The notes under the pieces are model-generated. The model saw only the letters and a program-made list of their open reading frames with translations. It was not told the DNA's origin and did not search any database. A stretch of 64,000 nucleotides of DNA, taken from the NCBI RefSeq assembly GCF_014805685.1, contig NC_060901.1, positions 22,690,405 to 22,754,404 of the forward strand, read 5' to 3'. Both the position numbers and the translations under genes were made by a program. The DNA comes from Silurus meridionalis (Eukaryota > Chordata > Actinopteri > Siluriformes > Siluridae). Each line of letters begins with the position of its first letter. The first letter of the stretch is position 1. Positions 10,636-53,895 of the stretch are shown in pieces.

Positions 10636-10656
10636 CGATCTGCGGTCGAGGGGGCG

Positions 10657-11880: not shown

Positions 11881-11887
11881 AGGGTCT

Positions 11888-15244: not shown

Positions 15245-15455
15245 ATTTCAGTCTGATTTTCATAATCAGTATTTATTGTCATTTATAACTTGATATTGAT
15301 GTGTCACAATATGACTCCTAAATTTAAACCCCCTCTTTAGTTATAATAAATTAAGTAAACATTTCATTACATTTGTAACTATAATTAACTTGAAGGATCA
15401 TCAAGTCTGCTTTATCAATAAATATAAACTTTTATTGTGTCTTAAAATGTTTTAC

Positions 15456-15761
15456 CTTTAACATAAAGACTGATGTATCTGTATTCCTGTAGTTCAGTGC
15501 TGCACCTGTAGTTTAAATGATCTTCTTCTCTCAGGTCAGATATGAGTAGTGACAGATTAGCAGGAAAAATGTTATTAAACAGCTGATATCTGCCAAGGTA
15601 GTGTTCATCATTTAAAACTTCAGCCCACTGTCCTGTTCTGAAGGTCTCCCAGGTGAATTTCTGAGGTTTGGAGAGCAGGTCAGAGCAGGAGCAGGGTAAC
15701 AGCACTGAACCACCTTTGTGTTGTGTGATTTCTATGTCATTTTTACCAGTAAGAGCACAGC
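15456..15761 (-). CDS. Gene B, first V-like Ig exon (D1)
   Basis: The 306-nt exon lies between TTTCTGTAG and a GTAAAA donor, phase 1 on both sides. It encodes GCALTGKNDIEITQHKGG, then LPCSCSDLLSKPQKFTW (first core Cys and core Trp), RYQLFNN, ANLSLLISDL and YRCSTE (second core Cys). The frame is open. It is the membrane-distal domain, homologous to D1 of C, P1, P2 and P3. Confidence 0.87.
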
Positions 15762-15999
15762 CTACAGAAACAAACACACAACACATCACAATCTACTGAA
15801 TACAATATTATAAAATGTTTTTAAAGAGAACATACAAGAGAATTGGAAGAAGAAAGAAAACAATTTCTGCACATTTAAATATCAGGTTTCGTTTCTCAGT
15901 CCAGTTTCTACAGTAACTACTGTGTGTGTTACACTTTCCTGTGCTCATGTGTGTATTTTTCTTTTAAATGCCAGAGTGAAATGTACACATAGGCAGCTC

Positions 16000-20106: not shown

Positions 20107-22170
20107 GTTCCCCTTCAGGAACTCGAGCTGCGTCGAAACGGTATGGGAACGCCCCTGCGTGACCACGCTCTGAACCACGTGTGAAATCTAGCCAATAGGC
20201 AAGCCGTGACGTCATAGACAGGCGACGTCACGTAAACCAGGAAGCTACAAGATGGCTGTGCGGTGGTAGCGACATTAGCTTCTGCTTGTTCAGGTAAGCG
20301 CTTTGAGTGTGTTATCTGTGCAGTCATGAGCTTATATGCAGGCAAAATTCTGTCTGCTGTGTTGTTTGCTTAGCTTAGGAGCGAGGGTATCGGTTGTTAG
20401 CATTTTAGCCGAGCGGTTCTTCTCCCGGTGCGTGTGACGTGGTGCTCCGTATTCTTCCTCCGAGGTGGGAGAATTTCAGAGAGCGCTCTCCGAGGTGAGC
20501 GCTCTCCCTCGAGGCTTTGGCTCTCGATGGTATCAGCTGTTAGCATTTAGCCGTGTGGCTATGCGCTCCCGGTGCGGGTGGCGCAGCATTACATGTCTCT
20601 CTCTCCGAGGAGGATGAGCTGGTGGATGCTAGCGAGCCTGCGGAATCCTCACAGCCTGGGCTGTATATGGAGCTTCTTGAGGTCGTGGCACGGGCTGGGT
20701 CCGAGCTGGATTAGCTTGGCCGGTCGTGTGGCAGAAGCAGCGTGCACCAGTGAGCTGGTTGTGCGTTTCCTGCACTGTGTCACAGCCTCAGCGCTTCCCT
20801 TGATCTGCCCACCGAGGTGTCTGGGTCCTGGGAGGCCCATTGGTGCGCGTGCTTTTCCGATGTTCTTTCGCTGTGCGCGAATGTTATTGGAGCTGCGTGG
20901 CGCGGCTACGGGACATTCCCCCGATTGCGCTGCCCGGGAGTTCTGGAATAGGTTCGCCGGTAAGGAGCCTGTCTCCTGCGGGTAGCACCTTGTTGGCGGG
21001 CGGAACCCTGGTTCACCCCCGCCCGGTGTTGTGGAGTCTGTGGCCCCTGAAGGGGCGCGGTTTGTAGCGGCTGTTCTCTCTACCAAGGTAGTAGAGGCCC
21101 TTCTCCACTCCAGAGCTCCCTCCACGAGGAGGTCGTATGCCGCACGATGGCGACTGTTCGCGTCACGGTGTGAGCACCGTGTCTTGGACCCAGTTAATTG
21201 CCCGGTCGGTTCAGTTCTGGTGTTTTTGCAGGTACAGTTTGCCGCAGGGTTAACCCCTTCGACCCTGAGGGTTTCTGTGTTTGCTGGGTAGGTCCCATTG
21301 GTGACACGTTTCCTCCGCGGCGCCCGGAGGCTGTGGCCCGGGACGCGACTCGGAGTGCCTGTCTGGGACTTGGCAGTTGCCTCGTCCCACCTGGAGTTGC
21401 CCCCTGGCATGGCCAGAGTGTTTCCTTACACGAGGCTGAGTGCTCCCACACGATGTGTCGTGTTACAGGCATTCTGCCCTCCTCTGTTTATAGCCCCCGA
21501 CCAGGGGTTACGAGACCCGGCTGTGTCCAGTGCAAGCACTGGGTGCTTATCTCCACAGGACGAGTCCTTGGAGGTGGTCGGTGCAGTTGTTCGGCTGCGA
21601 GTCCTGGTCCCCGCTCCGATCGCGGTCAGGGCTCGCCCCGCCGGAGTGTGGCGGCCTCTGCGGCTGGGTCCACATGAGTGTCACTCCGGGACGTCTGTGA
21701 AGCTGCGGATTGGTCCACCCCACTGACCTTTGTCAGGTTCTATGGCCTCGACCTCAGAGCCACCCTGGGCTCCTCTGTCCTGTGTGCTGGTGCCGAGGCC
21801 CTCACTCTTTCTGGTCAGTGTGGCGTGATTGGACACTCGTTCCCATAGCGTTTCGACGCAGCTCAAGTTCCTAAAGGAGAACGTCTCTAGGTTACGAACG
21901 TAACCCTAGTTCCCCGAAGGAACGAGGACGCTGCGTCTCCGTGCTATACTCCCTCCCTCTTTGCAGAAGCTAATGTCGCTACCACCGCACAGCCATCTTG
22001 TAGCTTCCTGGTTTACGCGACGTCGCCTGTCTATGACGTCACGGCTTGCCTATTGGCTAGATTTCACACGTGGTTCAGAGCGTGGTCACGCAGGGGCGTT
22101 CCCATAGCGTTTCGACGCAGCGTCTCGTTCCTTCGGGGAACTAGGGTTACGTTCGTAACCTAGAGACGTT
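20107..22170 (+). mobile_element. DIRS-type retrotransposon, copy 2 (internally deleted)
   Basis: Starts GTTCCCCTTCAGGAACTCG and ends TAACCTAGAGACGTT. The first 170 bp recur inverted near 21960-22120, and the internal complementary block is near 21836-21945. Between them are gag-like remnants and recombinase pieces but no reverse transcriptase, so about half of the element is gone. Left and right flanks come from different parts of the receptor-unit spacer. Confidence 0.85.
21031..21291 (+). pseudogene. DIRS copy 2, tyrosine recombinase N-terminal fragment
   Basis: Reads TKVVEALLHSRAPSTRRSYAARW, then RLFASRCEH, VGSVLVFLQVQFAAGLTPSTL. This is the core-binding (SAM-like) part of tyrosine recombinases. 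The catalytic half follows in other frames (LELPPGMARVFPYTRL, VVLQAFCPPLF at 21380-21490) and is truncated. Confidence 0.7.
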
Positions 22171-27975: not shown

Positions 27976-28240
27976 CTAGAGAGTGAGGGCCTCGGCACCA
28001 GCACATAGGACAGAGGAGCCCAGGGTGGCTCTGAGGTCAAGGTCATAGAACCTGACAAAGGTCAGCGGGGTGGACCAACCCCAGATGTCCTGGAGTGCCA
28101 GCGGACAAGGCCGTAGAGGCCGCCACACTCCGGGTAGAGTGAGCTCGAACCCCAAGCGGTGCGGAGAGGCCAGAGGACTCGTGAGTCCACTCACTCCCCA
28201 GGCTTCGGCCCCTGCCTCGACAGGGCATCTGCTCTGACAT
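27976..28240 (-). pseudogene. DIRS copy 3, tyrosine recombinase C-terminal part
   Basis: Two overlapping frames carry the landmarks HSTRSVAAST (the HxxR-type box) and GWSTPLTFVRFYDLDLRAT (the region with the nucleophilic Tyr). Because they are in different frames the catalytic domain is split by a frameshift. Confidence 0.65.
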
Positions 28241-28309
28241 TCAACTGAAACCCGGGATGTAAATGGCCCTCAAGGACAGGAGCTTGTCCCGAGACCACAA
28301 GAGGACTGC

Positions 28310-29234
28310 TCACGCTAGCTTGTACAAGGGGCGAGATCGGAGACCCCCCTGGTGGTTGATGTAAGAGACCACCGCCGTATTGTCCGTGCGAACCAACACA
28401 TGGCGATCTCTCAGGTCGGGGAGGAAGTGTTCCAACCCCAAAAACACTGCCATCATCTCCAGGCAATTCATGTGCCACGAGAGATGTGGGCCGCTCCACA
28501 GACCCTGGGCCGGGTGGCCACTCATGAGACCCCCCACCCCGTGAAGGAAGCGTCCGTCATTAGCGTCACGCGACGAGTCCCCAACACTGGGCCATGGGAC
28601 AGAAATGTTCCGTCTTTCAAGACATCCAAGGCTCGAAAAGCACGCCGCAAGACCTTGATAGTACGATGCGTGTTTCCCCTGATGGAGAACCCCCTGCCAT
28701 GGAGCCACCTCTGGAGGGGCCTCATGTGCAGGAGCCCGAGCGGAACTATGCTGGACGCCGCCACCATGAGACCCAGCAGCCTCTGGAACTGCCTCACAGT
28801 GAGCGGCTGGCCCTCCCGCACTCTCCCGACGGCAGTGAGGATGACCTCGACCCAAGGAGGTGACAACCGTGCCTACAACCTGGCCGCATCCCACACTTCG
28901 CCCAAAAAGGTGGTTCTCTGTGCTGGAGAAGGCACGCTTTTGCTGGCGTTTAGCCGAAACCCAAGCACCTTCATGCAGGCGAGGACGACATCTCAATGCC
29001 GAATCACCTGGTGCTCCGAATGAGCCAGGATCAACCAATTGTTGATGTAATTCAAAATGCGGATGCCCTGGAGCCGCAGCAGGGCCAGTGCCGCATCGAC
29101 GCATTTTGTGAAGGTGCGGGGGGAGAGTGCCAGGCCGAACGGGAGGACCCGATATTGGTATGCTACGCCCCCGAAAGCAAACCTCATGAACCTCCTGTGT
29201 GCAGGAGAAGGATGGAGATGTGAAAGTACGCGTC
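28310..29234 (-). pseudogene. DIRS copy 3, RT palm to RNase H
   Basis: RFAFGGVAYQYRVLPFGLALSP and the active-site box YINNWLILA sit at 28993-29187. Both catalytic aspartates of the usual YLDD are Asn here. Further on are RQFQRLLGLMVAASS, LMTDASFTGWG and, in another frame, MNCLEMMAVFLGLEHFLPDL and RTDNTAVVSYINHQGG, which are RNase H motifs. Stops and frame changes are frequent. Confidence 0.8.
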
Positions 29235-29851
29235 TATGCCGCCCTTAGTCACAATCCGAAGGCCGAGGTTCTTTTACTGATGTTTATTAAGCTTGACAGC
29301 AACACCGACATCAACACTGTAGAATTTACACCGTAGAATTTACAATGTAGAATTTACACCGTAGAACTGAATAAAAAGGATAAATATACAAAATACATTC
29401 AGTTACAAAGAAAAACATTAACTTTAGACAAAAAACAGAAAATAAACTTACATACCACTTTGCCTGCTTGTAGACTAAGTGGTAACTTCTTGCACAAACT
29501 TATTTTAATTAAACATATCTTCTTTACAATAAGCATAGCAGCTTTCAATGCTCATCGTGGCTTTTCACTCTTGCATGCGGTGAACAGGAAGTGACCTGTA
29601 CCACCAAGTATGATGGGATATGTATTAATATAACCCAAAACAAAAAAAATATCACATAAATCTTAAAAATCAAAAACTTTAGTCTACCAATCAAATATAC
29701 ATATTATAAAAAATGTTGAATTATAAAAATAAACAAGTTAAACAAACAAAAAAATAACAAAAATAAAATAACACTTAATTGTGAAAGTGCCACCTTGTGG
29801 ACATGTCATATTACAAAAGGAATGTTTCTGACTGCATATACAGCGTCCTTC
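29235..29851 (-). mobile_element. Probable solo LTR inserted in DIRS reverse transcriptase
   Basis: A 617-bp insert splits the RT between LKDA and YFHI. It is flanked by GACGC on both sides (minus-strand reading), a 5-bp target duplication. On the minus strand it starts TGTATATGCAG. Near its end it has CTTAATAAACATCAG, a polyadenylation-type signal, preceded by short repeats of GTAAATTCTAC. There is no coding capacity. The size, duplication and poly(A) signal fit an LTR, though the 3' end ATA is not the usual CA. Confidence 0.55.
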
Positions 29852-30280
29852 AGATCTATAGTGACGAACCAGTCCCCGGACCTGATCTGAGTCACGACCC
29901 CCTTGAGGGTGAGCATCCTGAACCTGAGTCTCCTTAGAGAGCGGTTTAAGGAGCGAAGATCTAGAATGGTACGCAAGCCTGACTCTTGAACCAAGTGGGG
30001 AACCACCTTGATGGCCCCCTTTCCCAGCAGTGTGCACACCTCTTGTTCCAGGATCAGAGCCTGCTTGGGTCCCACCAGGGTGGGACACATCCTGTTGAAA
30101 CGGGGAGGAGAGGACACAAACTGAATCGCGTAACCACCCTCTATCGTCCACGGGACCCACCGGGAGACCTCTGGCAGCCACTCCCAAGCCGCCAGAAACT
30201 TCCACAGGGGAACCAGCCCCTCGGTGCTGGCCTCTGATCCACTCAGAGCAGCTGGGGCGGGGCCATGCAGCTGATGACAC
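29852..30280 (-). pseudogene. DIRS copy 3, RT N-terminal part
   Basis: Reads FNRMCPTLVGPKQALILEQEV, LLGKGAIKVVP, LRTILDLRSLNRSLRRLRFRM and VTIDLKDA. These are the fingers region and the first catalytic Asp (in TIDLKDA) of DIRS RT. The frame is cut at the LTR-like insertion. Confidence 0.7.
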
Positions 30281-30380
30281 CTTGTGAGAGGCGGCGGGTC
30301 TTCCCCATCCGTACCGAGACTTTGATCGTCAGGATCTCCGCACCACAGCCCGTTTGCTGGAGGCGAGGATGACCCTCAGG

Positions 30381-31706
30381 TCATCTTGCTCCGTTTTTCT
30401 GGCCTTCGCGGTGCCCGGAAGGACCAGGCTGGGGCTGCCGCCGACCAGCCCCACAAGATCGGCGAGGGAGGTACTGCTGAAATGCAGCCGACTGCTTTTT
30501 AGACTCCTGAAACCTGTTCACAACCACCATCACAGCGTCACCAACCAGGCCAGAAGGAGCCATCGGTGCGTTCAAGAGCACAGCTCGATCCTTGTCTGGG
30601 AGGTCAGACAAGGTGAGCCACAGATGCCTCTCTGTGGCCACCAGGGCCGCCATGGACCGACCAACGGCCCGCCATGTGTTTCGTGGCCCGAATGGTTAAG
30701 ACGGCAGCGCGACGCAACTCCTTAACATCAGCGGCCCCGGAGCTAAGTCCCTCAATCCAACTCACGTAGCAGGTCAGCCTGGTATGCCTGTAACACACAC
30801 ATGGTGTGGAGACAACCCGCAGCCAGACCTGCTGCCGCGTAAGCCTTCCCTACTAAAGCCGATGTAGCACGTATCGGCTTAGTAGGGAACACCAGAGCCT
30901 TCAGTAACGATGCCACGCTAGGAGAGAGATAGCTGGCTAGCGTCTCTTCAACACACAGCATCGCCCCGTAGCCGCACACCTTAGCCCCAACCACGTTCGC
31001 GTAGAGCGAGGAGTGGCAAGAAAAAGTACGTGCTGAGTACGGGGTTTCCCAGGATCTGGACACCTCGGTGTGCAGATCGGAAAAAAAAGGGCAGGCCCCG
31101 GTGCCGAGGAAGCGACACAGGACGCAGAAAACGCTCATCCAGCTTACTGGGTGCGCGTTGCTTCTGGTGCTCCACTGGCCAAGCTAGATCTAGCTTAGCA
31201 ACGGCTCGCGTCACGACCTCGAGGAGTTCCTCAAACAGCACAGGCTGTGAGGAATCCATGGGCTTGCTAGCATCCATCAGCTCACCTTCCTCGGAAGGAG
31301 AGGCATGTAATGCCGTGCTGCTCGCACCGGGAGAAGAAGCAGCCATCGGGCCTGCTTCTCCGAGAGAGCAGAAGCTCGACTCAGCAGACGAAGCTGAAGC
31401 GGACTCATCCGACTCCAACCCCGCCGCTAAATCGGCCTGCGAGCCCCATGAGCGCCGGCGTCGCTTTGCCTCAGCAAAAGCGGGATCGGAGATGACATGG
31501 AGAGAGCTCTTCTCAAAGAGCGCTCTCCGGGAGCGAAGCGTGCGCATAGCCATGTGGCTACAATGCAAGCAATCAACCCCCTCGAGAGCCGATTGTGCAT
31601 GCTCCACTCCCAGGCAAACAACACACCGATCGTGTGAATCCTTACCGGTAATGAAACTCGGACATGGATGAACACACTTACGGTAATCCTGTCTGCCAGC
31701 CATCAC
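30381..31706 (-). pseudogene. DIRS copy 3, gag-like region
   Basis: Overlapping fragments: DESASASSAESSFCSLGEAGPM, LFEELLEVVTRAVAKLDLAWPVE, then LQAYQADLLRELD, then ERHLWLTLSDLPDKDRAVLLN. Near 31600-31700 a Cys/His cluster (CVVCLGVEHAQSALEGVDCLHC) is seen that is less clear in copy 1. Frames change at least three times. Confidence 0.65.
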
Positions 31707-33009
31707 TCGATCAGAAAAACACAGTGAAACAACGCTTACCTGAACAAGCAGAAGCTAGCGTCTGGTCCATCTCGCAGCCATATGTAGCTTCCTGTTTACG
31801 CGACGTCGCCCGCTGATGACATCATGTTCCAAATGCCTACTGGTCAGATTACACACTTGGTTCAGAGCGTGGTCACGCAGGGGCGTTCCCATAGCATTTC
31901 GACACAGCTCGAGTTCCTGATGGGGAACTTCAGAGAGTTAAATGGGAGGCTGCACAACCTAAAAAGGGACCACATCTGCTAAATAAAAAGAGTGAAAATC
32001 ATAATTACTCCACACTGGTAGATTCAACATATTTTAAAATGTGTTATATTTTAAAAAGAGGACATTGAGAATATTAACCCTCTGGAGTCTGAATTGCCGC
32101 CGGCGCCCAAACGTGCTTTTTTTTCAGATGCCAGCAAAAAGAGCTGAAACTGCTCGGTCATATTTGATTAAAAATGTCAAAGTAATACACCATTTAAATC
32201 TGTAAAGGGTCTACTTTCATTTGTGTATGCTCACTACATAAACAAAACGTTGTATTTTTTTTAAATGAATAAAATAGTCAGGGTGCGCCATCTGTCGCCT
32301 TTGTCTGCGTAAACTTTGTTTAGAAACGTGTCATCAAAAAGCGCTGAAACTCGGCCAATAGCTGACACACGGAAATAAAAAATATATCTTTAGACAGCTT
32401 AAAGTGTGTAGTTTTAGAATAAGTCGGTGAAATAAAAAAAACATATGTTTTCAATGAATGTAAATCATGTAAAACCAAGTAGAGGCACAGATTTTCCACT
32501 GCAGCTCATTATCTGATAATGAGCTGCGAGCGGACACGCCCCACCCCGCTATTCACAGGTAAAACAGTTCACACGTTGAGTCACACACACACACACGCCC
32601 CACGAACAGTGGCATAAAACAATGCCAGAGCATTTACCTTTTCATCTGAAGAAGATTGCGATTCCGATGAGGAGCGTTTGCATTTTGAAGAGCGAGGACT
32701 TTCCAGCAAGTTGCTACAATGAGTAAGTTATTTAGTCTTACATTCTGATCATATAAAACTCATATTTTTTGTAGACATCTCTGCCTCGCTTTTGTCAGCA
32801 TTGCCTTTTAATGTTACAACAAATATCCACCAATATCTGCTGATTTGTAACATTAACTGTTTGTGATTGTATGCCCTAAATATTGTTGACGTTATATAGT
32901 TATATTTTAGCCTCAGTTCAGTTTTGGTTGGTGTCACTGATCATCCTGAAAGGCTGTTATGTAGTGTTAGCTAGCAGAGATGTTCCCAAATGCTGAGGTG
33001 TAAATGCTA

Positions 33010-33630: not shown

Positions 33631-33668
33631 TGCAAACAACTTAACCAATGACACAATTAGTGATGTTC

Positions 33669-33700
<32 letters not shown>

Positions 33701-33720
33701 GTGTGTGTGTGTGTGTTTCA

Positions 33721-34235
33721 TAAACAGATGTGATCAAGCACCTGCTCCAAAAAGGGCAAAGGCCAAGGGACGCAAATACAAATGGAGAGATGTAACCGTG
33801 AGTGAGATGTATCGCTACATTGGGCTCTTATTTTACATGGCAATGGTAAAGTTGCCCTCCATCATAGACTACTGGCGACAGAGCAGTATTTTTACAGTTC
33901 CCTTTCCAGCAACAATAATGTGAAGGGACAGATACAGGAACATTTCGTGGAATGTACACATGAGTCACCCAGATGCAGACAAAGAAAATGACAGAAAGAG
34001 GGGCACATCTGAACATGACCGTCTGTTCAGAGTAAAACCGCTTATGGACACAATCCGTAAGACATGCAAAGCAATTTATCATCCTAGAAGACATTTAGCC
34101 GTGGATGAGAGGATGGTAGCATGCATAGCTAACACTTGGAGGACACAGTACATGAAAGCTAAGCCAACTAAGTGGGCGTTCAAGTTGTTTGTTTTTGCCG
34201 ATTCCTCAAATGGATACACTATTATTATTATTTAA
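33721..34235 (+). pseudogene. piggyBac transposase remnant
   Basis: Reads KYKWRDVTVSEMYRYIGLLFYM, IIDYWRQ, then after a stop in another frame HDRLFRVKPLMDTIRKTCKAIY, LAVDERMVA, QYMKAKPTKWAFKLFV, ADSSNGYT. DERM holds the first Asp of the piggyBac triad. Sequence after NGYT is missing, so the other catalytic Asp residues are gone. An acidic N-terminal segment (SSEEDCDSDEERLHFEE) is seen at 32644-32720. Confidence 0.85.
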
Positions 34236-37624: not shown

Positions 37625-40605
37625 CTCCACTGCTCTCTGTTTTACTGAAACTTGGCTCAGTCGCTCAATCCCGGACAGCGGATTACTTCTCTCGGGCTTC
37701 CACTTACACTGAGCGGATCACGTAACGGAGCTATCGGGCAAAACGAAAGGCGGCGGAATCTGCTTCTACATTAACGAACGTTGGTGTACAGATGTCACAG
37801 GGCTGGATAAATACTGCAGCCCAAACTTGGAATCACTGGTAATAAACTGTAAACCGTTTTACTCACCGCGGGAATTTTCCTCATTCATTCTTACCGGAGT
37901 TTACATCCCACCTCAGGCCAACGTGAGTGATGCACTGCAAAACCTGGCAAACCAAATATCCGGCTTGGAGCAAAAACATCCTGATTCTCTTTTTATTATC
38001 CTTGGAGACTTTAACAGAGCAAAACTAACACTAGAACTTCCAAAATATAGGCAACATATTAACTGTCCGACAAGAGGGAAAAACACACTGGATCATTGCT
38101 ACACCGTTCTTAAGGACTCGTATCGCTCTGTACCCCGGGCAGCTTTAGGGAACTCTGATCACTGCTTGGTTCATCTTATTCCAACATACAGGCAGAAACT
38201 AAAATCTGTTAAGCCTGTAGTCAAAACAGGGAAGAGATGGACCAGTGAGGCAAAGCAGGAACTACAAGACTGGTTTGACTGCACTGATTGGAGTGTCTTT
38301 GAGGCTGGAACTGACAGCCTGGATGAGCTGACTGACACTGTGACATCCTACATCAGTTCTTGTGAAGACATGTGTGTGCCAACCAAAACCTTCTGCAAGT
38401 TTAGTAACAACAAGCCATGGTTCACAGCCAAACTGAAAAAACTTCGACATGCCAAGGAAGATGCATACAGAGGGGAGGACAAAGCACTGTACAAGCAGGC
38501 CAGGAACCAACTGACAAAGGAGATCAGAATAGCCAAAAGAAGCTACTCTAAAAAGCTGAAAAGCAGGTTTTCAGCTAACGACCCTGCATCAGTGTGGAAA
38601 GGCCTGCAAAATATCACAAACTACAGGAGACCACCCCTCCCCACTGAAGCAAACAAAGACCTGGCTGACGACCTCAACACCTTCTACTGAGAACAATATC
38701 TTCACACCTCTCATCCAACCCAGCCCAATGTCTGCCCCATCACACCTCTGGAATCCTCTCTTACAACTCCTTCCAGCACTCAAGTTGCGCTCACGATTTG
38801 TGAAAAGGATGTGTATCGGCTCTTTCAGAGACAGAAGACAAGGAAGGCTCCCGGCCCAGATGGTGTCTCCCCCTCCTGTCTCAAAGCATGTGCTGACCAA
38901 CTGGCTCCCATTTTCACCTCTATCTTCAACAGATCACTGGAGTTGTGTGAGGTCCCCTCCTGCTTTAAACTCTCCACAATCATCCCAGTCCCCAAGAAAC
39001 CCTCCATTACTGGACTGAATGACTACAGGCCTGTCGCTCTGACATCTGTCGTCATGAAGACCTTTGAAAAGCTGGTATTGGCCCATCTAAAGAAGGTGAC
39101 AGAACAGCTGCTGGATCCCCTACAGTTTGCATACCGAGCAAACAGATCGGTGGATGACACAGTCAACATGGGGCTAAACTACATTCTGCAACACCTTGAC
39201 TGCCCAGGAACATATGCCCGGATTATGTTTGTTGACTTTAGTTCGCTTTCAATACAATAATTCCGGGAATCCTCCACTCAAACTCCTAAACCTTACTATA
39301 CCCCTGCCATCTGTCAATGGATCACCAGCTTCCTGACAGGCAGGAAACAACAGGTGAGACTGGGAGGTGTTACCTCCGGTATTCGGACAGTCAGCACTGG
39401 TGCTCCTCAGGGGTGTGTCCTTTCCCCACTGCTATTCTCCCTTCAAACTAATGACTGCATATCAAGTGACCCAACTGTCAAACTCCTGAAATTTGCAGAT
39501 GACACCACGCTCATTGGACTCATCCAAGATGGTGACGAGTCTGCATATAAGCAGGAGGTGAAGTAGCTGGTGCTATGGTGCAGTCAGAACAACCTTGAGC
39601 TAAACACACTCAAAACTGTGGAGATGATAGTGGACTTTAGGAAACATCCCTCAACACTACTCCCCCTCACAATATCCAACATCCCTGTGTCACCTGTGGA
39701 GAACTTCAAGTTTCTGGGCACTACCATTTCCCAAGACCTGAAATGGGAATCAAACATAAACTCGATTCTGAAAAAGGCCCAGCAGAGGATGTACTTTCTA
39801 AGGCAATTAAGGAAGTACAGTCTGCCACAGGAGCTGTTGATACAGTTCTACACTGCAGTCATTGAATCTGTCCTGTGCTCATCAATCACCATCTGGTTTG
39901 GAGCAGCAACATAACAGGACAGAAACAGACTGCAGAAAACTGTTAAAACAGCAGAAAAAATCATTGGTGCCCCCCTGCCCACTCTCCAGGACATGTACCA
40001 TACAAGAACCAGAAACCGGGCAGGAAAAATCATTAATGACCCTTCACACCCTGGACACAACATCTTTCAGCTCCTCCCTTCTGGCAGGCGCTACAGAACT
40101 TTGCTCACTAAAACTGCCAGACACAGTAACAGTTTCTTTCCCCAAGCAATCACCCTCACTAACAACTGACCATAATTATATTCCCTGCTCACATCTATGA
40201 GTACTGCACAAAACTCCCACTCACCACATTATCTGTATATGTTGCACACACTATTGCTTCTATATACTATTGCTTCTATATACTGTACAAAGTTTTATAG
40301 TAAACTCTCTCATCATACCTGGCACACAATACTGTCATTTGCACTACCATGCACTCCCACACTTTATGTACATTACTGGTCTGTATCCCTATTTATTACC
40401 CACACTGTCTATACTGTCTCATATTGTCTGTATTGTCTGTATTGTCTTGTATAGTCTGTTTTTGTCTTGTCGTGTCTGTTTTGTCTTGTATAGGTTTTTA
40501 TTTATGTCTGTACTTTTGAGAGTAACAAACAGCTGGAACCAAATTCCTTGTGTGTGTCAACACACTTGGTCAATAAACCTGATTCTGATTCTGATTCTGA
40601 TTCGG
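37625..40605 (+). mobile_element. L2-like LINE, 5'-truncated
   Basis: Starts within the apurinic endonuclease domain ([30 protein letters not shown]), followed by RT. Ends with (GATTCT)n, a 3' tail known for fish L2 elements. It sits in intron 1 of P1, only about 13 bp upstream of the D1 exon, so it replaces most of the polypyrimidine and branch-point region. Confidence 0.85.
37827..39914 (+). pseudogene. L2 LINE ORF2 (endonuclease and RT), broken
   Basis: 37827-38690 holds the endonuclease C-terminal part and linker, then a TGA within LNTFY. From 38811 the RT reads RKAPGPDGVSPSCLKACADQL, LNDYRPVALTSVVMKTFEKL, QFAYRANRSVDDTV and VDFSS. A 1-base loss near 39250 shifts the frame. GAPQGCVLSPLLFSL and LLKFADDTTLIG (the catalytic FADD) follow, then a TAG at 39564, then CSQNNLELN. 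One frameshift and two stops make it dead. Confidence 0.85.
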
Positions 40606-40618
40606 ATTGTTTCTGTAG

Positions 40619-40921
40619 GTTGTGCTCTTTCTGGTGAATATAACACAGAAATCACACAACACAAAGGTGGTTCAGTGCTGTTACCCTGCTCCTGCTCTGA
40701 CCTGCTCTCCAAACCTCAGAAACTCACCTGAGAGACCTTCAGAACAGGACGTCCAACTGAAGTGTTAAACGATGAACACTACCGTGGCAGATATCAGCTG
40801 TTTAATAAAATTTCTCCTGCTAATCTGTCACTACTCATATCTGACCTGAGAGAAGAAGATCAGGGACTCTACAGGTGCAGTACTGAAAAGAAACACAGAG
40901 ACTTCAGTCTTTATGTTAAAG
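40619..40921 (+). pseudogene. P1 D1 Ig exon with nonsense mutation
   Basis: 303 nt from GTTGTGCTC to AAAG|GTAAAC, 101 codons as in P2. It reads GCALSGEYNTEITQHKGG, LPCSCSDLLSKPQKLT and then TGA (40729-40731) exactly at the invariant core Trp codon (TGG in P2 and B). The rest (GRYQLFNKISPANLSLLISDL, YRCSTEKKHRD) is intact in frame. Confidence 0.9.
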
Positions 40922-41133
40922 GTAAACCATTTAAATACACAATAAAAGTTGATATTTATTGTGAAAGCAGACTTGATGATCCTTCAAATGAATTATAGTT
41001 AAAAATGTAATAAAATATTTACTCCATTTATCATAACTAAAGGGGAATTTTAACTATAAGGAGTCATATTGTGACACATCAATATTAAGTTATAAATGGC
41101 AATAAATACTGATTATGAAAATCAGGCTGAAAC

Positions 41134-41529
41134 TGTCAGGATCTTCCGGGCACACAGCCCGCACTTCCGTTTTCGCGGCGCGCACTTCCGGGTCGGCGGC
41201 CATCTTGTTTTTTCCCCTGTTCCTCCCGGTATTTAAGGACACACAAAACTTTAGCTCAGGGCCAGATTCTGATCATGCTCCCTTTCCTGCTCTGAACTGT
41301 GTTTTTTTTTGTTGTTGTTGTTTGATTGTGTTTCTGCTCTGCCCTTCATATTTCTGTTTGCTGGATTTTGGATTGTTTGCCTGTGTTTTGACCCTGGACT
41401 GTTTATTGGACTTTGTTTTTGTTTTTCCCTAATTGCTCTGCTTACTTTTTATTAAAGCCTGTTTTCTTATTACACTGTCGCATCCTGCATTTCGGTCCTT
41501 TCTCACCTACTCACCCGCACGCTCTGACA
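41134..41529 (+). mobile_element. Solo LTR in the D1-D2 intron of P1
   Basis: TGTCAGGATCTTCCGGGC to CGCTCTGACA, 396 bp. It has GGCGGCCATCTTG, TATTTAAGG and TTTTTATTAAAGCC as promoter and polyadenylation features. It is the cleanest copy of the LTR shared by B, C and P2. No internal retroelement sequence is next to it. Confidence 0.78.
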
Positions 41530-42259
41530 GAATAATCTGTCCTTGCACTCATATCCTGCAATCTCTCCCATGAGTTTCTGACATGAAACTGTGGACTGCT
41601 ATCAGATTGGATGTGACAGATTTCTCAGTCTAATCTATGATTTATTCTGGCAACACTGTAGTGTTTATAGAGCTCCATGAAACCTGTATAATCCCTTCAT
41701 TACAACAGATATTTACATAAACATCTGTTACATCAGAATTATATGTTGATGTGACATAAAACATTAAACCCCAAACTCACTGTAATTTACAGTCAGAGAA
41801 AATCTACATAACACACTTTACATAATGATCTAAAGAAAGTCGACCTGGAAGTCATAACACCATTTAATGTCTACAGAAATCTGTCACTAGACGAGGTGTT
41901 ATAACTTAACATTCACACTGAGAAACACAGTCTGTACATCTTATATGGGATTATTATTATTATTACTAACTGTACAAACTGATGTTAAAGATTATTGTAG
42001 ATTTAGCAGTTATTTAAATATAAAGAACCCAGTATAAGTTCAGTGTTGGGTATCAGAGTCCTTATATTGGATTCATGTAGAGAATTTAAACAGCTGATTG
42101 TCACATCATTTAAAAATCTCTTCTGGTTTGCAGCAGAAAATAACCCAGCCATTAGGAAGGCACAAGTCAGTGCACTCTTAGTGCCGGTCCCAAGCCCGGA
42201 TAAATGGGGAGGGTTGCGTTAGGAGGGGCATCCAGCGTAAAACATGTGCCATATCGAAT

Positions 42260-43488
42260 ATGAGGGTCACGATTAAGAATTTCATACCGGATTGGTCGAG
42301 GCCCGGGTTAACAACGACCGAAACAGGTATTGTTAGCCAACAGGGTACCGGTGGAAATTGGGCTACTGTTGGCCGAAGGAGGAGAAGGAGAGGAGGAAGA
42401 CATCTACAGAGACGTCAGGGAAAGGAGAAGTGTAGGAGAGTAGAGGTTACGGTTGGTACTTTAAATGTTGGCACTATGACTGGTAAAGGGAGAGAGTTAG
42501 CTGATATGATAGAGAGGAGAAAGGTAGATATGTCGTGTGTTCAGGAGACCAAGTGGAAAGGGAGTAAGGCTAGAAACATTGGAGGTGGGTTTAAACTGTT
42601 CTATCATGGTGTGGGTGGAAAGAGAAATGGTGTAGGGGTAATTCTGAAGGAAGAGTACAGTAAGAGTGTAGTGAAGGTGAAGAGAGATGCTGATAGGGTG
42701 ATGATCGTGAAGCTGGAAGTTTAATTGATGATGATAAATGTCATCAGTGCCTATGCTCCACAAGTTGGCTGTGAGATGGAGGAGAAGGAAAGATTCTGGA
42801 GTAAATTAGATGAAGTGGTAGATGGTGTACCTAGGAATGACGATTGGTGATTGGTGCAGACTTTAATGGACATGTTGGTGAAGGGAACAGAGGTGATGAG
42901 GAGGTCATGGGTAGGTATGGCCTAAAGGAGAGGAATGTGGAAGGGCAGATGGTGGTAGATTTTGCTAAAAGGATGGAAATGGCAGTGGTGAATACGTATT
43001 TTAAAAAGAAGGAGGATCATAGGGTGACCTATAAGAGTAGAGGAAGGTGCACACAGGTGGATTATGTTCTATGTAGGAGATGCAACCTGAAGGAGATTTT
43101 AGACTGTAAGGTGTTGGCAGGGGACAGTGTAGCTAGACAGCTTGTGGTCTGTAGGATGGTTTCGGAGGCGAAGAGGAAGAGGAGGAGAGTAAGGACTGAA
43201 AGAAGAATAAGATGGTGGAACCTGAAGGAGGAAGACTATAGTGTGAGGTTTAGGGAAGAGGTCAGTCAGGGGCTCGGTGGAGGTGAAGAGGTGCTGGATG
43301 ATTGGGAAACTACTGCAGGAGTGATGAGGGAGGCAGTTAGAAAAGTACTTGGTGTGACATCTGGAAATAGAAAGGAAGACAAAGAGACATGGTGGTGGAA
43401 TGAGAAAGTGCAGGAGAGCATAAGGGGAAAGAGGTTAACAAAACAGAAGTGGGATCGTCAGGGTGATGAGAAAAGTAGGCAGGAGTAG
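42260..43488 (+). pseudogene. RTE endonuclease region, broken
   Basis: VGTLNVGTMTGKGRELADMIER, VQETKWKGSKARNI and FYHGVGGKRNGVGVILKEE are the start of an APE-type endonuclease. A TAA follows at 42722. After a frameshift near 42840, VIGADFNGHVGEGNRGDEEVMG and VVNTYFKKKEDHRVTYKS, RCTQVDYVLCRR complete it. A TAG at 43486 lies between endonuclease and RT. Confidence 0.85.
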
Positions 43489-43494
43489 AAGGAG

Positions 43495-44520
43495 ATGCAA
43501 CAGCAGGTGAAGAAGGATGTGGCGAAAGCCAAGGAAAGGGCATTCAAGGAGCTGTATGAGAGGTTGAACACTAAGGAAGGAGAAAAGGATTTGTACCGAT
43601 TGGCCAGGCAGAGAGACCGAGCTGGGAAGGATGTGTTGCTAGAAAGAGCAATAAAGGATGGAGATGGAAATGTGTTGCCTAGTGAGGAGAGTGTGTTGAG
43701 AAGATGGAGGAAGTATTTTGAGCAGCTGATGAACGAGGAAAATGAGAGAGAGAGAAGGTTGGATGATGTGGAGTTAGGGAAGCAGGAAGTGGACAGGATT
43801 AGTAAGGAGGAAGTGAGAGCAGCGATTAAGAGGATGAAAAGTGGAAAGTCGGTTGGACCAGATGACATACCGGTAGAAGCATGGAGATGTTTAGGAGAGA
43901 TGGTAGTGGAGTTTTTAACCAGATTGTATAACAAGATTCTGGAAGGTGAGAGGATGCCTGAGGAATGGAGAAGGAGTGTGCTGGTACCGATCTTTAAGCA
44001 TAAGGGAGATGTGCAGACCTGCAGTAACTACAGGGGAATTAAGTTGATCAGTCACACCATGAAGTTATGGGAACGAGTAGTGGAAGCCAGGCTGAGAGAA
44101 GAGGTGACCATCTGTGAGCAACAGCATGGTTTCATGCCGAGGAAGAGCACCACAGATGCCTTATTAGCTTTGAAAATGTTGATGGAGAAGTATAGAGAAG
44201 GACAGAAGGAATTGCATTGTGTATTAGTGGATTTTGAGAAAGCGTACTACAGGGTGCCAAGAGAGGAGTTGTGGTACTGTACGAGGAAGTCAGGTGTGTC
44301 AGAGAAGTATGTGAGGGTGGTGCAGGACATGTATGAGGACAGTGTGACAGCAGTGAAGTGTGCAGTAGGAACGACAGACTGGTTCAAGGTGAAGGTTGGA
44401 CTGCATCAAGGATTGGTTAATCGGACTGTGGTGAGACCTGCGATGTTGTATGGATTAGAGACAGTGGCGTTGAGTAAAAGGCAGGAGGCGGAGCTGGAGG
44501 TAGCAGAGCTGAAGATGTAA
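43495..44520 (+). pseudogene. RTE reverse transcriptase lacking its active site
   Basis: Open for 341 codons: KSVGPDDIPVEAWRCLGEMV, NYRGIKLISHTMKLWERVVEA, QQHGFMPRKSTTDALLALK, HCVLVDFEKAYYRVPREELW, VKVGLHQG. It then jumps directly to VNRTVVRPAMLYGLETVALSK, a C-terminal RTE segment. The stretch with the catalytic FADD box is deleted in frame. FEKAYYRV also lacks the Asp normally in AYDRV. Confidence 0.85.
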
Positions 44521-44580
44521 AGTTTTCGTTTGGAGTGATGAGGATGGACAAGATTAGAAATTAGTTTATAAGAGGGAAAG

Positions 44581-44721
44581 CACAGTAACAGAGTAAAACT
44601 GGTCATAAAAACCCTCCAGGAAACCTCTCTCTACTCATATCAGACCTGACTGAAGAGGACCAGGGACTCTACACATGTTCTGAACAGTATGATCACAGAG
44701 ATCTGAGACTGTCTGTTAAAG
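44581..44721 (+). pseudogene. P1 D2 Ig exon, 3' remnant
   Basis: Only the last 140 nt remain (GNLSLLISDLTEEDQGLYTCSEQ region) after the RTE insertion. A one-base loss in GGTCATAAAAACC against GGTCAGTAAAAACC in P2 adds a frameshift. The GTACAT donor is intact. Confidence 0.85.
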
Positions 44722-44829
44722 GTACATTTTTGTCATTAATGACTGTGAGCATGTTTTACTCCAGTGTCATGTGTCATATTACTAACAGTGATAGAAACAA
44801 TCATTAGTACGTTTTGTTCCTTTTAGTAG

Positions 44830-44895
44830 GAAAAAGAGAAACTTCAACACAATCGAGGAAAACAGACAAACCACCTCCATCAGTACAGCCTTAGA
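44830..44895 (+). pseudogene. P1 stalk exon
   Basis: Reads GKRETSTQSRKTDKPPPSVQP and then TAG where other copies have CAG. The downstream intron has lost the TM exon core: between CAGACTCCCACTATCTG and ACTCAGTGTAG there is only a short palindromic filler (GATATAACTGTTTAGTTATATC). Confidence 0.75.
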
Positions 44896-45360
44896 GTAAA
44901 ACAACAACACTCAGACTCCCACTATCTGATATAACTGTTTAGTTATATCAGATATTATTATATGATATAACTCAGTGTAGTTTTTATTTATTAGTTAAGA
45001 ACACATATTAAACCTTTTTTTTTAAATTAAACCTAAAATGTTGGCATCACAATTCAGAATGAAAGATTTGGAAATGAACTGATGAATTTACATGTACATG
45101 AGTTAACATGATCTTTACCACATCTGTCAATTCATGCTGAAAGAAAACTAAATGTTTTGTTTATCATTTTGTTGAAATTCTCCTTTCGGATACAGATTCA
45201 CTTATAACCAGTAAAAGGGTTTAAACATTGATAATAGTTTTGTATTGTTTTACTCTGTTATTGTATGTGAGTTTAAACAGCACTGCAGCCCTCCACATCT
45301 TACTGGAGAAACCACTTACAAACCACTAGAGGTGTGATTTCTGAGATCTTTTCTCTTTAG

Positions 45361-45428
45361 GAGGAAGATGTGGAGAGAACGTGGTTGCTGGAGGACATCA
45401 GGACTGTGAGGTAAAGCAGGAGGATCAG
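45361..45428 (+). pseudogene. P1 tail exon
   Basis: 68 nt, RGRCGENVVAGGHQDCEVKQEDQ, with the usual acceptor and GTTAGC donor. The last exon at 45699-45734 (after TTTTCCACAG) reads TVSDLNTFCIE and stop. Both are open but belong to a dead gene. Confidence 0.6.
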
Positions 45429-46445
45429 GTTAGCACACGAACAATAACAGTTCTAACAGATTTGTTTCTACCTTTAGAACTTCTGTTGTGTTTGTGATAC
45501 AGTGCAGGTAACACACATGAACCACACATGCTTTCATTAAACACTGATTTATAGGAAATGATCTTCTGCTGCTTCTATCAGAAAAACACATGGTGTAAAG
45601 AAATGATTCAGATTTAGAGATTTGTGTCATCAGCACTAACAGTCACAGTCACTGATTGTGTGTTATATCAATCATCATTTTGTTCTGTTTTTCCACAGAC
45701 TGTATCTGATCTTAACACTTTCTGTATTGAATAACACATTAACACATAGCGGAGCATCACGGGTCCAGATTAACACTGGAAAAAAAAATCTGAATATGGC
45801 ACCATTATAACAAACTAATCCACAGTAAACATAGATACGTTTTCACATATTATAGAATAATACTGAAAATATGTATTAAATACACACCATGACCAAGTAC
45901 AGGATATACTGTATTGATTTTTTGTGATTTTTTATATTGCTGTTAAAAATCACATTCACACACATGCATTGATTTTGTTTCTACAGAAAAGAATGACAAA
46001 ACTTGTTTAAGTTTCAGATTAGTTGACTCACTATAACTCATTATGTTTATGTTAAACCTTTGGTTCAAACAGGAATGATGCCACATGCCTGGATGATTTG
46101 GGGATAGATGGACCTATGCAAGTCGTACTAAGTACATTTCCAACATGCCTGTTTGGTACTAAAAAGAGGACATTTTTGCAGGTGTGGTTTCAGAAAAGAG
46201 ACTGGATTGAGTATTCAGTTAAAGCTTGTATATGTTCAAACTAATTAAAGACAAGGTGTTTAACCATACTGCGGTTTCCAACTCTTGGTTTATCCGTGAC
46301 AGATAAAAAAAAAATAAAAGCAACAAAAAAAATTTGCGGCACTTAAAAGTGAGCTGCATCTATGGTGAACTATTTTTAGAAAAGGACCCTGGGCACCATG
46401 TCGGTGAGTCCTGGACTATAGGAAGCCAGTAATATAATAGATCAT

Positions 46446-48937: not shown

Positions 48938-48986
48938 ATGATGAAGTGTTTGTATCTTTTGTCTGTTGCGTTTCATGTAGCTGCAG
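48938..48986 (+). CDS. P2 signal-peptide exon
   Basis: MMKCLYLLSVAFHVAAG, double ATG, GTGAGT donor, phase 1. First exon of the best-preserved unit of the short-stalk type. Joining 48938-48986, 50631-50933, 51977-52288, 52400-52465 and 52593-52651 gives an open frame of 262 codons plus stop. Confidence 0.85.
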
Positions 48987-50630: not shown

Positions 50631-50933
50631 GCTGTGCTCCTTTTGGTGAAAATAACACAGAAATCACACAACTCAAAGGTGGTTCAGTGCTGTTACCCTG
50701 CTCCTGCTCTGACCTGCTCTCCAAACCTCAGAAATTCACCTGGATGATCTTCAGAACAGGACGTCCGACTGAAATGTTAAATGATGAACACTACCGTGGC
50801 AGATATCAGCTGTTTAATAACATTTCTCCTGCTAATCTGTCACTACTCATATCTGACCTGAGAGAAGAAGATCAGGGAATCTACAGGTGCAGTACTGAGA
50901 AGGAACACAGAGACATATTTCTTTATGTTAAAG
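50631..50933 (+). CDS. P2 first V-like Ig exon (D1)
   Basis: 101 codons between TTTCTGTAG and GTAAAA. GCAPFGENNTEITQLKGG, then LPCSCSDLLSKPQKFTW with first core Cys and core Trp, GRYQLFNNISPANLSLLISDL and EEDQGIYRCSTE with the second core Cys. No stop or indel. The Cys-x-Cys after Leu-Pro is shared by D1 of all units. Probably the outer ligand-facing domain; ligand unknown. Confidence 0.88.
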
Positions 50934-51116: not shown

Positions 51117-51470
51117 ATTCCACTTACACTTCCGGTTTCACGGCGCGCACTTCCGGGTCGGCGGCCATCTTGGTCCCCCACCCCATCGCGCCTCCCGGTA
51201 TTTAAGGAAACTCAAAACTTTAGCTCCGGACCAGATTCTGATCCTGCTCCCTGTTCTGTTCTGGACTGTGTTTGTGTTTGTGTTTGTGTTTGTGTTTGTG
51301 TTTGTGTTTGTGTTTCTGCTCTGCCCTTCATAGTTCTGTTTGCTGGTTTTTGGATTTTTTGCCTGTGTTTTGACCCTGGACTGTTTATTAGACTTTGTTT
51401 TTGCCTTTTCCCCATTGATCTGCTTACTTTTTATTAAAGTCTGTTTTCTTATTACACTGTATCAGATTGG
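51117..51470 (+). mobile_element. Solo LTR remnant in the D1-D2 intron of P2
   Basis: Same LTR as in B, C and P1 (GGCGGCCATCTTGG, TATTTAAGG, TTTTTATTAAAGTC), but both ends are lost. The left end is cut at ATTATTCCACTTAC and the right at ACACTGTATCAG. A tandem (GTGTTT)n of about 8 units at 51266-51316 lies inside it. Confidence 0.7.
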
Positions 51471-51976: not shown

Positions 51977-52288
51977 GCTGTGAGCTGGTGAAGAAGACAG
52001 GGGTAGAGAATGTGACTGGGTTCATAGGAGAGTCTGTAGTTCTGCCCTGCGTCTGCACTGACCTACAGAACGACCCGAAGAGAGTAACATGGGAGTTTAA
52101 TAAAAACAATCACTTTCAGGAAATTTACTCTAAACAGACTGAAAATCACAGTAACAGAGTGAAACTGGTCAGTAAAAACCCTCCAGGAAACCTCTCTCTA
52201 CTCATATCAAACCTGACTGAAGAGGACCAGGGAAACTACAGATGTTCTGCACAGGCTGATCTCAGAGATCTGAGTCTGTCTGTTAAAG
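51977..52288 (+). CDS. P2 second V-like Ig exon (D2)
   Basis: 104 codons from GCELVKKTGVENVTGFIGE, LPCVCTDLQNDPKRVTW, through KNPPGNLSLLISNL, to EEDQGNYRCSAQADLRDLSL. Core Cys, Trp and Cys are present. Acceptor GTACAG and donor GTACAT, phase 1. Fully open and nearly identical to D2 of B, from which it differs by scattered substitutions only. Confidence 0.88.
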
Positions 52289-52399: not shown

Positions 52400-52465
52400 G
52401 AAGAAGAGAAACCTCAACTACATCGAGGACAACAGACAAAACACCTCAATCAGAACATCCTCAGA
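52400..52465 (+). CDS. P2 stalk exon
   Basis: 22 codons after TTTTCAGTAG: GRRETSTTSRTTDKTPQSEH and on to CAGA|GTAAAA. Thr/Ser-rich hinge, phase 1 at both ends. If the donor is missed, the frame would run on to a TAA in the intron at about 52530. Confidence 0.65.
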
Positions 52466-52592
52466 GTAAAACAACAACACTCAGACTCCCACTATCTTAT
52501 ATTTTCATTCCATTATATTTTTAAGTAAAAAAACACAATATTACACACATTATTTTATGATTGACTCACATTCTGGATGTTTAAATACACAG

Positions 52593-52651
52593 TTTTCTTG
52601 CTTCCTGTGGTTTTGCTGTTGCTGACACTCAGTGTAGTTTTTATTTATTAG
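52593..52651 (+). CDS. P2 transmembrane exon ending in stop
   Basis: After AAATACACAG the phase-1 reading is IFLLPVVLLLLTLSVVFIY and TAG (52649-52651). This 19-residue hydrophobic helix matches in position and sequence the TM part of P3 (FLVLLLLIPGVVAFIWW). No charged residue lies in the helix. The protein would end right after the membrane with almost no cytoplasmic tail, so any signalling would need a partner. A GTTAAG donor at 52651 overlaps the stop, but using it also yields TAG with the next exon. Confidence 0.6.
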
Positions 52652-53051
52652 TTAAGGACAAAAATTAAACCCTTTATTTTATTAAACATAAAATGTTGGC
52701 ACCACAATTCAGAATGAAAGATTTGGAGATGAACTGATGAATTTACATGTACATGAGTTTACATGATCTTCACCACATCTGTCAATTCATGCTGAAAGAA
52801 AACTAAATGTTTTGTTTATTCATTAAGTCTGTCTTTCCCTCTGTTCTAAAGAATTCTGAGACAAATAAACAAATGTTTTCTTTTACTTATAACCAGTACT
52901 CCAAACATTTTTTAAACATTGATAATAGTTTTGTATTGTTTTACTTTGTTATTGTATGTGAGTTTAAACAGCACTGCAGGCCTCCACATCTTACTGGAGA
53001 AACCACTTACAAACCACTAGAGGTGTGATTTCTGAGATCTTTTCTCTTTAG

Positions 53052-53119
53052 GAGGAAGATGTGGAGAGAATGTGGTTGCTGGAGGACATCAGGACTGTGA
53101 GGGAAAGCAGGAGGATCAG
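53052..53119 (+). CDS. P2 tail exon (in frame only if the TM exon is skipped)
   Basis: 68 nt, RGRCGENVVAGGHQDCEGKQEDQ in phase 1, donor GTTAGC. The last exon 53203-53238 reads TVSDLNTFCIE and stop. Stalk exon to tail exon is phase-compatible, so skipping the TM exon gives a secreted form with this C terminus. Including the TM exon makes this part 3' UTR. Confidence 0.45.
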
Positions 53120-53238
53120 GTTAGCACACGTACAATAACAGTTCTGTTATAGTCATTGATTGTGTGTTATATTAATCATCATTTTGTTCTGGTTTTCCAC
53201 AGACTGTATCTGATCTTAACACTTTCTGTATTGAATAA

Positions 53239-53895
53239 CACATTAACACACAGCCGGAGCAGCACGGGTCCAGATTAACACTGGATATAAAGAACTGAAT
53301 ATGGCACCATTATAACAAACTAATCCACAGTAAATATAGACACGATTTCACATCTTATAGAATTTACTATATTGATTTGTGTAGTCATTTTTTTTATGTT
53401 GCTGTTAATCACATTAACACACATGCATGGATGTGATTTAATTGGGTTTAAGAGACAGAGTTTCCAGATCATTGTTACTGTTACTTATATTAGCTGAGTG
53501 TATTGTTCTGCATTCACTTTGTCTGTTCATCATTAATTTCTTGTTGATGTACAGTTTCATTTTTATATCTTATATATTATATTAGAATCATTTTATTCTA
53601 TATTCATCTTATTTGTAATGATCTAATATCAGGGTAAAAAATGTATATTCCAGAAGCATCATGGTGTTTTGTGTAAGAAGACTGTTATACATGTTCTTGT
53701 TTGTGACTTTCAGTGTTTAGACTGATGGTACCTTTAGTCCCTGTTCTAGTAAACTAACATGAGGATGTGTTTTTGACAGACTTCACAGCACTTCTGTAAA
53801 ACACTCTGGATAAGAGAATCTGCGAAATGCCTGAAATATAAATGTTAATGTTACAATTTTTGCAGCTTTTTTTCAATGTGATTGATATCTTACAT

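What the first reader, a model, noticed from the sequence alone, without database searches (positions are those of the whole stretch)
52400..53238. P2 can switch between membrane and secreted forms by skipping its TM exon
Stalk, TM and tail exons all begin in phase 1. The TM exon (52593-52651) ends in its own stop codon, so including it gives a receptor that ends at the membrane. Skipping it joins stalk to tail exon in frame and gives a soluble protein ending RGRCGENVV...FCIE. The tail exon is conserved in sequence and frame in B, C, P1 and P2, which would be odd if it were only 3' UTR.
Basis: partly seen in the sequence, partly recalled or inferred. Interest (0 to 1): 0.75.

Follow-up and report, generated by a model that had tools for sequence, protein, structure and literature searches.

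The report
Catfish immune receptor gone soluble
This catfish gene keeps a leftover membrane-anchor exon with no usable exit splice site, and its last exon is the former signalling tail of a membrane receptor cut down to a short end, so it most likely makes a soluble immune protein rather than switching between two forms.

Summary
The window is from Silurus meridionalis (southern catfish). The TM-skipped splice is open from leader to stop (277 aa); a public gene model (HF521_008118) matches it from V1 to the stop except for one extra Val (NAGNAG acceptor). A switch is not shown and is the less likely reading. The TM exon has no usable donor. None of 9 cluster genes with a P2-type tail has a spliceable TM exon by my rule (deleted in B, C and 821k, broken in P1, stop-ended or donor-less elsewhere); 10 of 11 genes with the other tail type do. 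P2's last exon is the ITIM-like cytoplasmic exon of membrane relatives (111 of 139 aligned bases) with the motif Tyr changed to Phe, Ser to Cys, and a stop three codons after that Cys; remains of the rest lie in the 3' flank. Of 12 catfish protein models (five genera) ending TFCxx, none has a predicted TM; of 46 Tyr-tailed models, 44 do. Best reading: an inhibitory-type membrane receptor became a dedicated soluble one, and the P2 TM exon is a relic or at most a minor alternative last exon. Closest known kind: carp SITR. No transcripts could be examined.

The parts
48938..48986 (+). P2 leader exon, MMKCLYLLSVAFHVAAG|, donor CAG|gtgagt
   Evidence: Found by ORF and donor scan, spliced frame open; same leader type in family proteins. 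The public model P0001 misses it and starts from an intronic ATG at 50455 instead.
50631..50933 (+). P2 V1 exon (Ig V-set), phase 1-1
   Evidence: Pfam V-set E 9.2e-12 for the ORF that holds it; splice sites and frame.
51977..52288 (+). P2 V2 exon (Ig V-set), phase 1-1
   Evidence: Pfam V-set E 4.3e-12; 95.8-96.8% identical DNA to V2 of the TM- and Tyr-tail-bearing genes 654k, 836k and 663k.
52400..52465 (+). P2 stalk exon, phase 1-1, NAGNAG acceptor (52397 or 52400), weak donor AGA|gtaaaa
   Evidence: the same junction residues PQ|RG occur in models of Silurus 821k (P0002), Ictalurus (P0043) and Ameiurus (P0104) (P0104 tail).
52593..52651 (+). TM exon or TM-exon relic: IFLLPVVLLLLTLSVVFIY then TAG; no in-frame donor
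   Evidence: Only nearby GT is TTA|gttaag, score -3.58.
53052..53119 (+). Tail1 exon RGRCGENVVAGGHQDCEGKQEDQ, phase 1-0; second cytoplasmic-type exon in membrane relatives
53203..53238 (+). Tail2 exon TVSDLNTFCIE stop: homologue of the ITIM-like exon TVPDVTYSTV... with Y to F, S to C and an early stop
   Evidence: DNA alignment 111 of 139 columns identical to gene 663k; tblastn of the Tyr tail hits it and the flank after it.
53235..53320 (+). Remains of the lost cytoplasmic tail (ITH*HTAGAARVQINTG ... TEYGTIITN), now 3' of the stop
   Evidence: tblastn E 4.1e-4 at C18:22743639-22743724; DNA alignment.

Best explanation
P2 is a gene for a secreted two-V-domain receptor of the catfish pIgR/CD300-like cluster. 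It descends from a membrane receptor with an ITIM-like tail. In its lineage the TM exon lost its splice donor, so the stalk splices past it to tail1 and tail2 (shown: open frame, sites, models; inferred: that the cell does this). The last exon, once carrying VTYSTV, became TFCxx-stop. The P2 TM exon is a relic that could at most act as a minor alternative last exon. Because its V2 is nearly identical to that of membrane receptors with Tyr tails in the same cluster, the soluble protein probably competes with them for ligand (inferred).
For: Open soluble frame of 277 aa. Public model P0001 is the same from CAPFGENN to the stop but for one Val. No spliceable TM in 0 of 9 P2-type genes, against 10 of 11 P3-type genes (769k has a stop). 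TM exon deleted in 3 of 9 (B, C, 821k) and lacking its 5' half in P1, while tail1 is indel-free in 9 of 9. 0 of 12 TFCxx-ended models have a TM segment, 44 of 46 Tyr-tailed ones do. Tail2 is the ITIM-like exon with the Tyr lost. Of the public models matched to P2-type genes, P0001 (P2), P0002 (821k), P0007 and P0031 (829k), P0019 (B) and P0018 (866k V2), none has a TM.
Against: No transcript seen; the models are predictions and P0001 has a wrong start. The stalk donor is weak (score 1.60; 28.8% of GT sites in the window score as well). The TM exon keeps its acceptor and a hydrophobic frame in P2, 687k and 672k, more than a long-dead exon should. Tail1 shows no codon-level purifying signal (10 N, 2 S). 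V2 trees do not group TFC-tailed proteins (8 changes, shuffled mean 9.2, 133 of 500 shuffles as low). Models of B (P0019) and 866k (P0018) do not use the tail in this frame.
Confidence: 0.65

Rival explanations
1. One reading: TM is an alternative last exon of P2 (stop, then poly(A) in the following intron), giving a tail-less membrane or GPI-type form, while skipping gives the soluble form.
For: Acceptor and hydrophobic frame kept in P2, with the stop right after the hydrophobic run. ATTAAA at 52664 and 52681 and AATAAA at 52864 follow it.
Against: 620 of 1000 400-nt windows nearby hold such a hexamer, so these say little. Acceptor context is pyrimidine-poor (8 of 17). The exon is deleted or broken in 4 of 9 relatives with the same tail; 866k has lost 9 bases in it and 829k has no stop. 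No listed model includes it.
Confidence: 0.22
2. P2 is a recent pseudogene or unexpressed copy, like P1, C and 672k; the open tail is inheritance only.
For: Sister copies P1, C and 672k have broken V exons yet tail1 is 65/67, 65/67 and 66/67 identical to P2. No codon-level purifying signal in tail1.
Against: All P2 exons from leader to stop are open with splice sites, and 821k and 829k are intact as well.
Confidence: 0.08
3. P2 is mainly a tail-less or GPI-anchored surface protein that always uses the TM exon; tail1 and tail2 are dead sequence downstream.
For: A hydrophobic stretch ending at the very C-terminus resembles a GPI signal (recalled rule; no predictor run).
Against: Tail1 is indel-free in 9 of 9 genes and more conserved than introns, splice sites of the tail are kept, and TFCxx tails exist in five genera, always without TM.
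Confidence: 0.05

Closest known systems
Carp soluble immune-type receptor (SITR), PMC3031540 (abstract, passages and one results section read)
   Same: Teleost multigene family of soluble receptors with two Ig domains, no TM and no ITIM/ITAM, next to related TM-bearing families; CD300/pIgR-like.
   Different: SITR's second domain has a WCR motif and its C-terminus is a short basic stretch of 15 aa. P2's domains have KFTW and RVTW at that place, and its tail is an ex-ITIM exon with three Cys. Direct sequence comparison with SITR was not done.
Mammalian LILRA3 and LAIR2 (named in PMC3031540 as receptors without TM)
   Same: Dedicated soluble genes inside a cluster of membrane paired receptors, thought to act as competitors.
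   Different: Unrelated cluster; conversion route and tail differ.
Membrane/secreted isoform switches such as IFNAR-2a versus IFNAR-2b/c (passage in PMC5536018) and IgM (recalled)
   Same: Alternative use of TM-coding exons yields soluble and membrane products.
   Different: There both forms are documented; in P2 the TM exon has no donor and no membrane form is documented.
Catfish 'junctional adhesion molecule-like' / 'polymeric immunoglobulin receptor-like' / 'CMRF35-like' gene models (database names)
   Same: Same V1-V2-stalk-tail family; 12 models have the TFCxx end without TM.
   Different: Database names only; Foldseek gives JAML and pIgR ectodomains on top but with TM-scores of about 0.3, so this is Ig-fold likeness, not identity.

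Membership tests
Membrane/secreted splice-switch gene | In-frame skipping joins stalk to tail | tested here: met
Membrane/secreted splice-switch gene | The TM exon can be included as a normal internal exon | tested here: not met
   No GT donor of score 2 or more in the TM exon frame.
Membrane/secreted splice-switch gene | The TM exon can serve as last exon with its own poly(A) site | tested here: inconclusive
   Hexamers present but common (620 of 1000 windows).
Membrane/secreted splice-switch gene | Both isoforms exist in RNA | not testable with these tools
   No transcript collection is held.
Soluble immune-type receptor (SITR) kind | Two Ig domains, no TM in the main product, no ITIM/ITAM | tested here: met
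   (for the TM-skipped product).
Soluble immune-type receptor (SITR) kind | CD300-like WCR motif in the C-proximal domain | tested here: not met
   Sequence read: RVTWEF; definition from passages of PMC3031540.
Soluble immune-type receptor (SITR) kind | Secretion shown with an antibody | not testable with these tools
   Done for carp SITR (abstract), not here.
ITIM-bearing inhibitory receptor | TM segment followed by a cytoplasmic [IVLS]xYxx[IVL] motif | tested here: not met
   P2 has TFCIE where relatives have VTYSTV; motif definition recalled.

The most novel reading that the evidence does not exclude
Before the catfish genera Silurus, Ictalurus, Ameiurus, Neoarius and Tachysurus split, one inhibitory receptor lost its TM donor and turned its ITIM exon into a secreted tailpiece: the signalling Tyr became Phe, the next Ser became Cys, and a stop followed. 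This Cys tail, now outside the cell and with two more Cys in tail1, makes disulfide-linked multimers in the manner of antibody tailpieces, while V domains are kept similar to those of the membrane receptors within each species, so the soluble form stays a matching decoy.
Probability: 0.25. Interest if true: 0.65.

Novelty: new variant of a known kind. Interest (0 to 1): 0.45.

Why it matters
Soluble receptors made by their own genes are known, but their origin is rarely visible. Here the steps can be read in DNA: membrane relatives with an intact TM exon and ITIM-like exon lie in the same cluster as genes whose TM exon is donor-less, stop-ended or deleted and whose ITIM-like exon has become a Cys-bearing end. 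If transcripts confirm it, catfish offer a natural series for how an inhibitory receptor becomes a soluble competitor. It also corrects the idea that the conserved tail proves a switch: the tail is conserved because it is the C-terminus of a soluble gene type.

Tried and rejected
Phase agreement as evidence for regulated skipping: rejected, because the leader-to-tail exons are of the usual phase-1 Ig kind. Tail conservation in C and P1 as proof of function: rejected, both have broken V exons. Codon-level selection test on tail1: no purifying signal. Poly(A) hexamers after the TM exon: as common elsewhere. A V2 tree to show one origin of TFC-tailed genes: did not cluster them (30 of 58 proteins, 11 of 12 TFC-tailed, had a V2 stretch my pattern could cut out). 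In one search the V1 donor was indexed one base off and its score is void; one search shows AAG|gtaaaa. In one search the search span reached into V2 and introns, so its P2-type rows are noise; one search repeats it between stalk and tail1. In one search the intervals of 769k and 778k had no stalk hit and were set by hand; the automatic rule passes 11 of 11 P3-type genes, of which 663k has its clean exon only and 769k passes only by other stretches (its proper exon has TAG), hence 10 of 11. In one search a strict filter dropped most matches, so several models were placed by reading. The TFC-tailed set was chosen by its TFCxx end, so sharing those letters is by choice; the absence of TM and the extra codon before the motif (12 of 12, tails printed) are not. 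One search listed 120 of 588 proteins. Structure model: mean pLDDT 69.2, tail disordered; Foldseek adds only Ig-fold likeness. Literature searches gave nothing used.

Full report
What was checked. The window lies at C18:22690405-22754404 of a 742.6-Mb assembly. A protein search names the species: the best hit to the TM-skipped P2 product is HF521_008118 of Silurus meridionalis, on a contig of the same length as C18 (28,049,309). From CAPFGENN to the stop it equals my splice except for one extra Val, which is what the upstream choice of the NAGNAG acceptor gives. Its first 26 residues come from an intronic ATG; a proper leader exon lies at 48938-48986. So the model is a prediction, not proof of splicing.

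Anatomy of P2. Leader 48938-48986, V1 50631-50933, V2 51977-52288, stalk 52400-52465, TM 52593-52651, tail1 53052-53119, tail2 53203-53238. Skipping TM gives 277 aa (278 with the other acceptor); including TM gives 262 aa ending VVFIY. If the one GT near the TM end were used to reach tail1, the junction again makes TAG. Donor scores from a matrix that I recalled: leader 12.51, tail1 7.32, V2 5.31, stalk 1.60, TM end -3.58. If the stalk donor fails, the frame stops about 20 codons on, without TM, so every product without the TM exon is soluble.

Neighbours. A search of the assembly with 52400-53238 gave 54 matches, all on C18 between 22.65 and 22.92 Mb. I fetched 20 stretches and mapped exons. 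Nine genes have a tail1 at least 89% identical to that of P2 (672k, 687k, B 698k, C 713k, P1 735k, P2 742k, 821k, 829k, 866k); eleven have one at most 80% identical (P3-type). Between stalk and tail1 the rule 'AG acceptor, hydrophobic stretch, no stop, phase-1 GT donor of score 2 or more' finds nothing in 9 of 9 P2-type genes. P3-type genes have a clean TM exon ending W..[KR] G|gta in 10 of 11 (nine, 663k); 769k has TAG in it. In P2-type genes the exon is deleted in B, C and 821k, lacks its 5' half in P1, ends in TAG in 672k, 687k, P2 and 866k (866k also lacks 9 bases), and is open but donor-less in 829k. Further relics without a nearby tail1 (679k, 680k, 811k) show a lost acceptor, a one-base loss and an inner stop.

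Is the tail under constraint? Tail1 is 95.9% identical over the nine genes; 0 of 245 overlapping noncoding windows reach that. It has no indel; 0 of 409 noncoding windows is indel-free (long deletions add to this). Against: 10 nonsynonymous and 2 synonymous changes on 55.3 and 13.7 sites, seven of the ten in 829k; the 36 bases before it are 94.0% identical; tail2 at 92.2% is equalled or beaten by 4 of 321 windows. P1, C and 672k have broken V exons and 687k a truncated V2; P2, B, 821k and 829k are open in V1 and V2; V1 of 866k was not fetched. So within this genome the tail argument is suggestive only.

Other catfish. Searches returned 134 proteins in all; one search listed 120 of 588. Twelve end TFCxx: Silurus (P0001, P0002), Ictalurus (P0005, P0016, P0043), Ameiurus (P0044, P0104), Neoarius (P0017) and Tachysurus (P0026, P0033, P0051, P0082). 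0 of 12 have a hydrophobic 18-mer above 2.0 after residue 100; of 46 with Tyr-type ends 44 do, the exceptions being P0032 and P0103 (Fisher p 1e-10, but rows are relatives and gene models). All 12 also have one residue more before the motif than the Tyr tails (tails). Nine further models end GAKTFH-like and lack TM: a second kind of soluble end in this family.

Where the tail came from. The Tyr tail of membrane relatives (VPDVTYSTVSHVNTAGAARVQIIDGDETEYARIITN) is encoded at 654k, 663k, 769k, 786k and 836k, and the same probe also hits P2's tail2 end and the flank behind its stop. In a DNA alignment P2's tail2 and flank match the 663k exon in 111 of 139 columns. Codon by codon, Tyr (TAC) is Phe (TTC), Ser (TCT) is Cys (TGT), and two codons later comes TAA. 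829k keeps the form TVPDLVTFCIE, closest to TEPDLVTFCTK of Ictalurus. So tail2 is a cut-down ITIM-like exon read in its old frame, and it can be reached only by passing over the TM exon.

Mechanism. Shown: structure, frames, sites, homology. Inferred: that the stalk splices to tail1 in cells, that the product is secreted, and that it competes with membrane relatives; P2's V2 is 95.8-96.8% identical in DNA to V2 of 654k, 836k and 663k, which carry TM and Tyr tails. A tree of V2 from 30 of 58 proteins does not group the TFC-tailed ones (8 changes, shuffled mean 9.2, 133 of 500 shuffles as low). Either V exons are exchanged or made alike within species, or the soluble tail arose more than once; the extra codon and the shared changes favour the first, but this is not settled.

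Known kinds. Carp SITR (PMC3031540: abstract, passages, section on the gene family) is a family of soluble two-Ig receptors beside TM-bearing relatives; its authors also say that TM exons are hard to predict from genomic sequence alone. Structure model and Foldseek give the Ig fold with JAML and pIgR on top at low TM-score; the V1 sequence search in PDB puts pIgR first (E 3.9e-11). In the held library 'junctional adhesion molecule-like' with 'catfish' gave no paper and 'soluble immune-type receptor' gave only the carp paper; two searches listed no paper whose listing describes this tail. Subscription papers are not covered.

Verdict. The sequence facts are right in the main; the soluble product is likely; a switch is not shown and the TM exon is more likely a relic. 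The better finding is the ex-ITIM soluble tail shared by several catfish genera.

Noticed in passing
window 53235-53320: Decayed remains of an ITIM-like cytoplasmic tail (HTAGAARVQINTG, TEYGTIITN) lie just 3' of the P2 stop.
   Followed up: yes
L017 (gene 663k) and proteins P0015, P0022, P0024, P0035, P0038, P0041, P0048, P0071, P0124: Nine TM-less catfish models end GAKTFH-like; in gene 663k the same GAKTFHQQ reading runs on into the TM exon, which hints at a real alternative-acceptor switch in membrane-type genes.
   Followed up: partly
window about 8200-8510 and 15442-15792 (gene B): The public model of B (P0019) reads the stalk and tail1 in another frame (EEDVERTWLLEDIRTVRESRRIRL), using a CCA|gtaaga donor created by the TM deletion.
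   Followed up: partly
window 40600-45450 (P1): P1 has a stop in V1 and a truncated V2, with a retroelement-like ORF (reverse-transcriptase type, 42182-44520) between V1 and V2.
   Followed up: partly
window 4561-5480, 9666-12217, 20551-21726, 27976-31754, 33645-34235, 37713-39914: Many long ORFs look like transposon or retroelement proteins (by eye; no family search run).
   Followed up: no
window 51271-51318: Tandem (GTGTTT)n run in the V1-V2 intron of P2.
   Followed up: no
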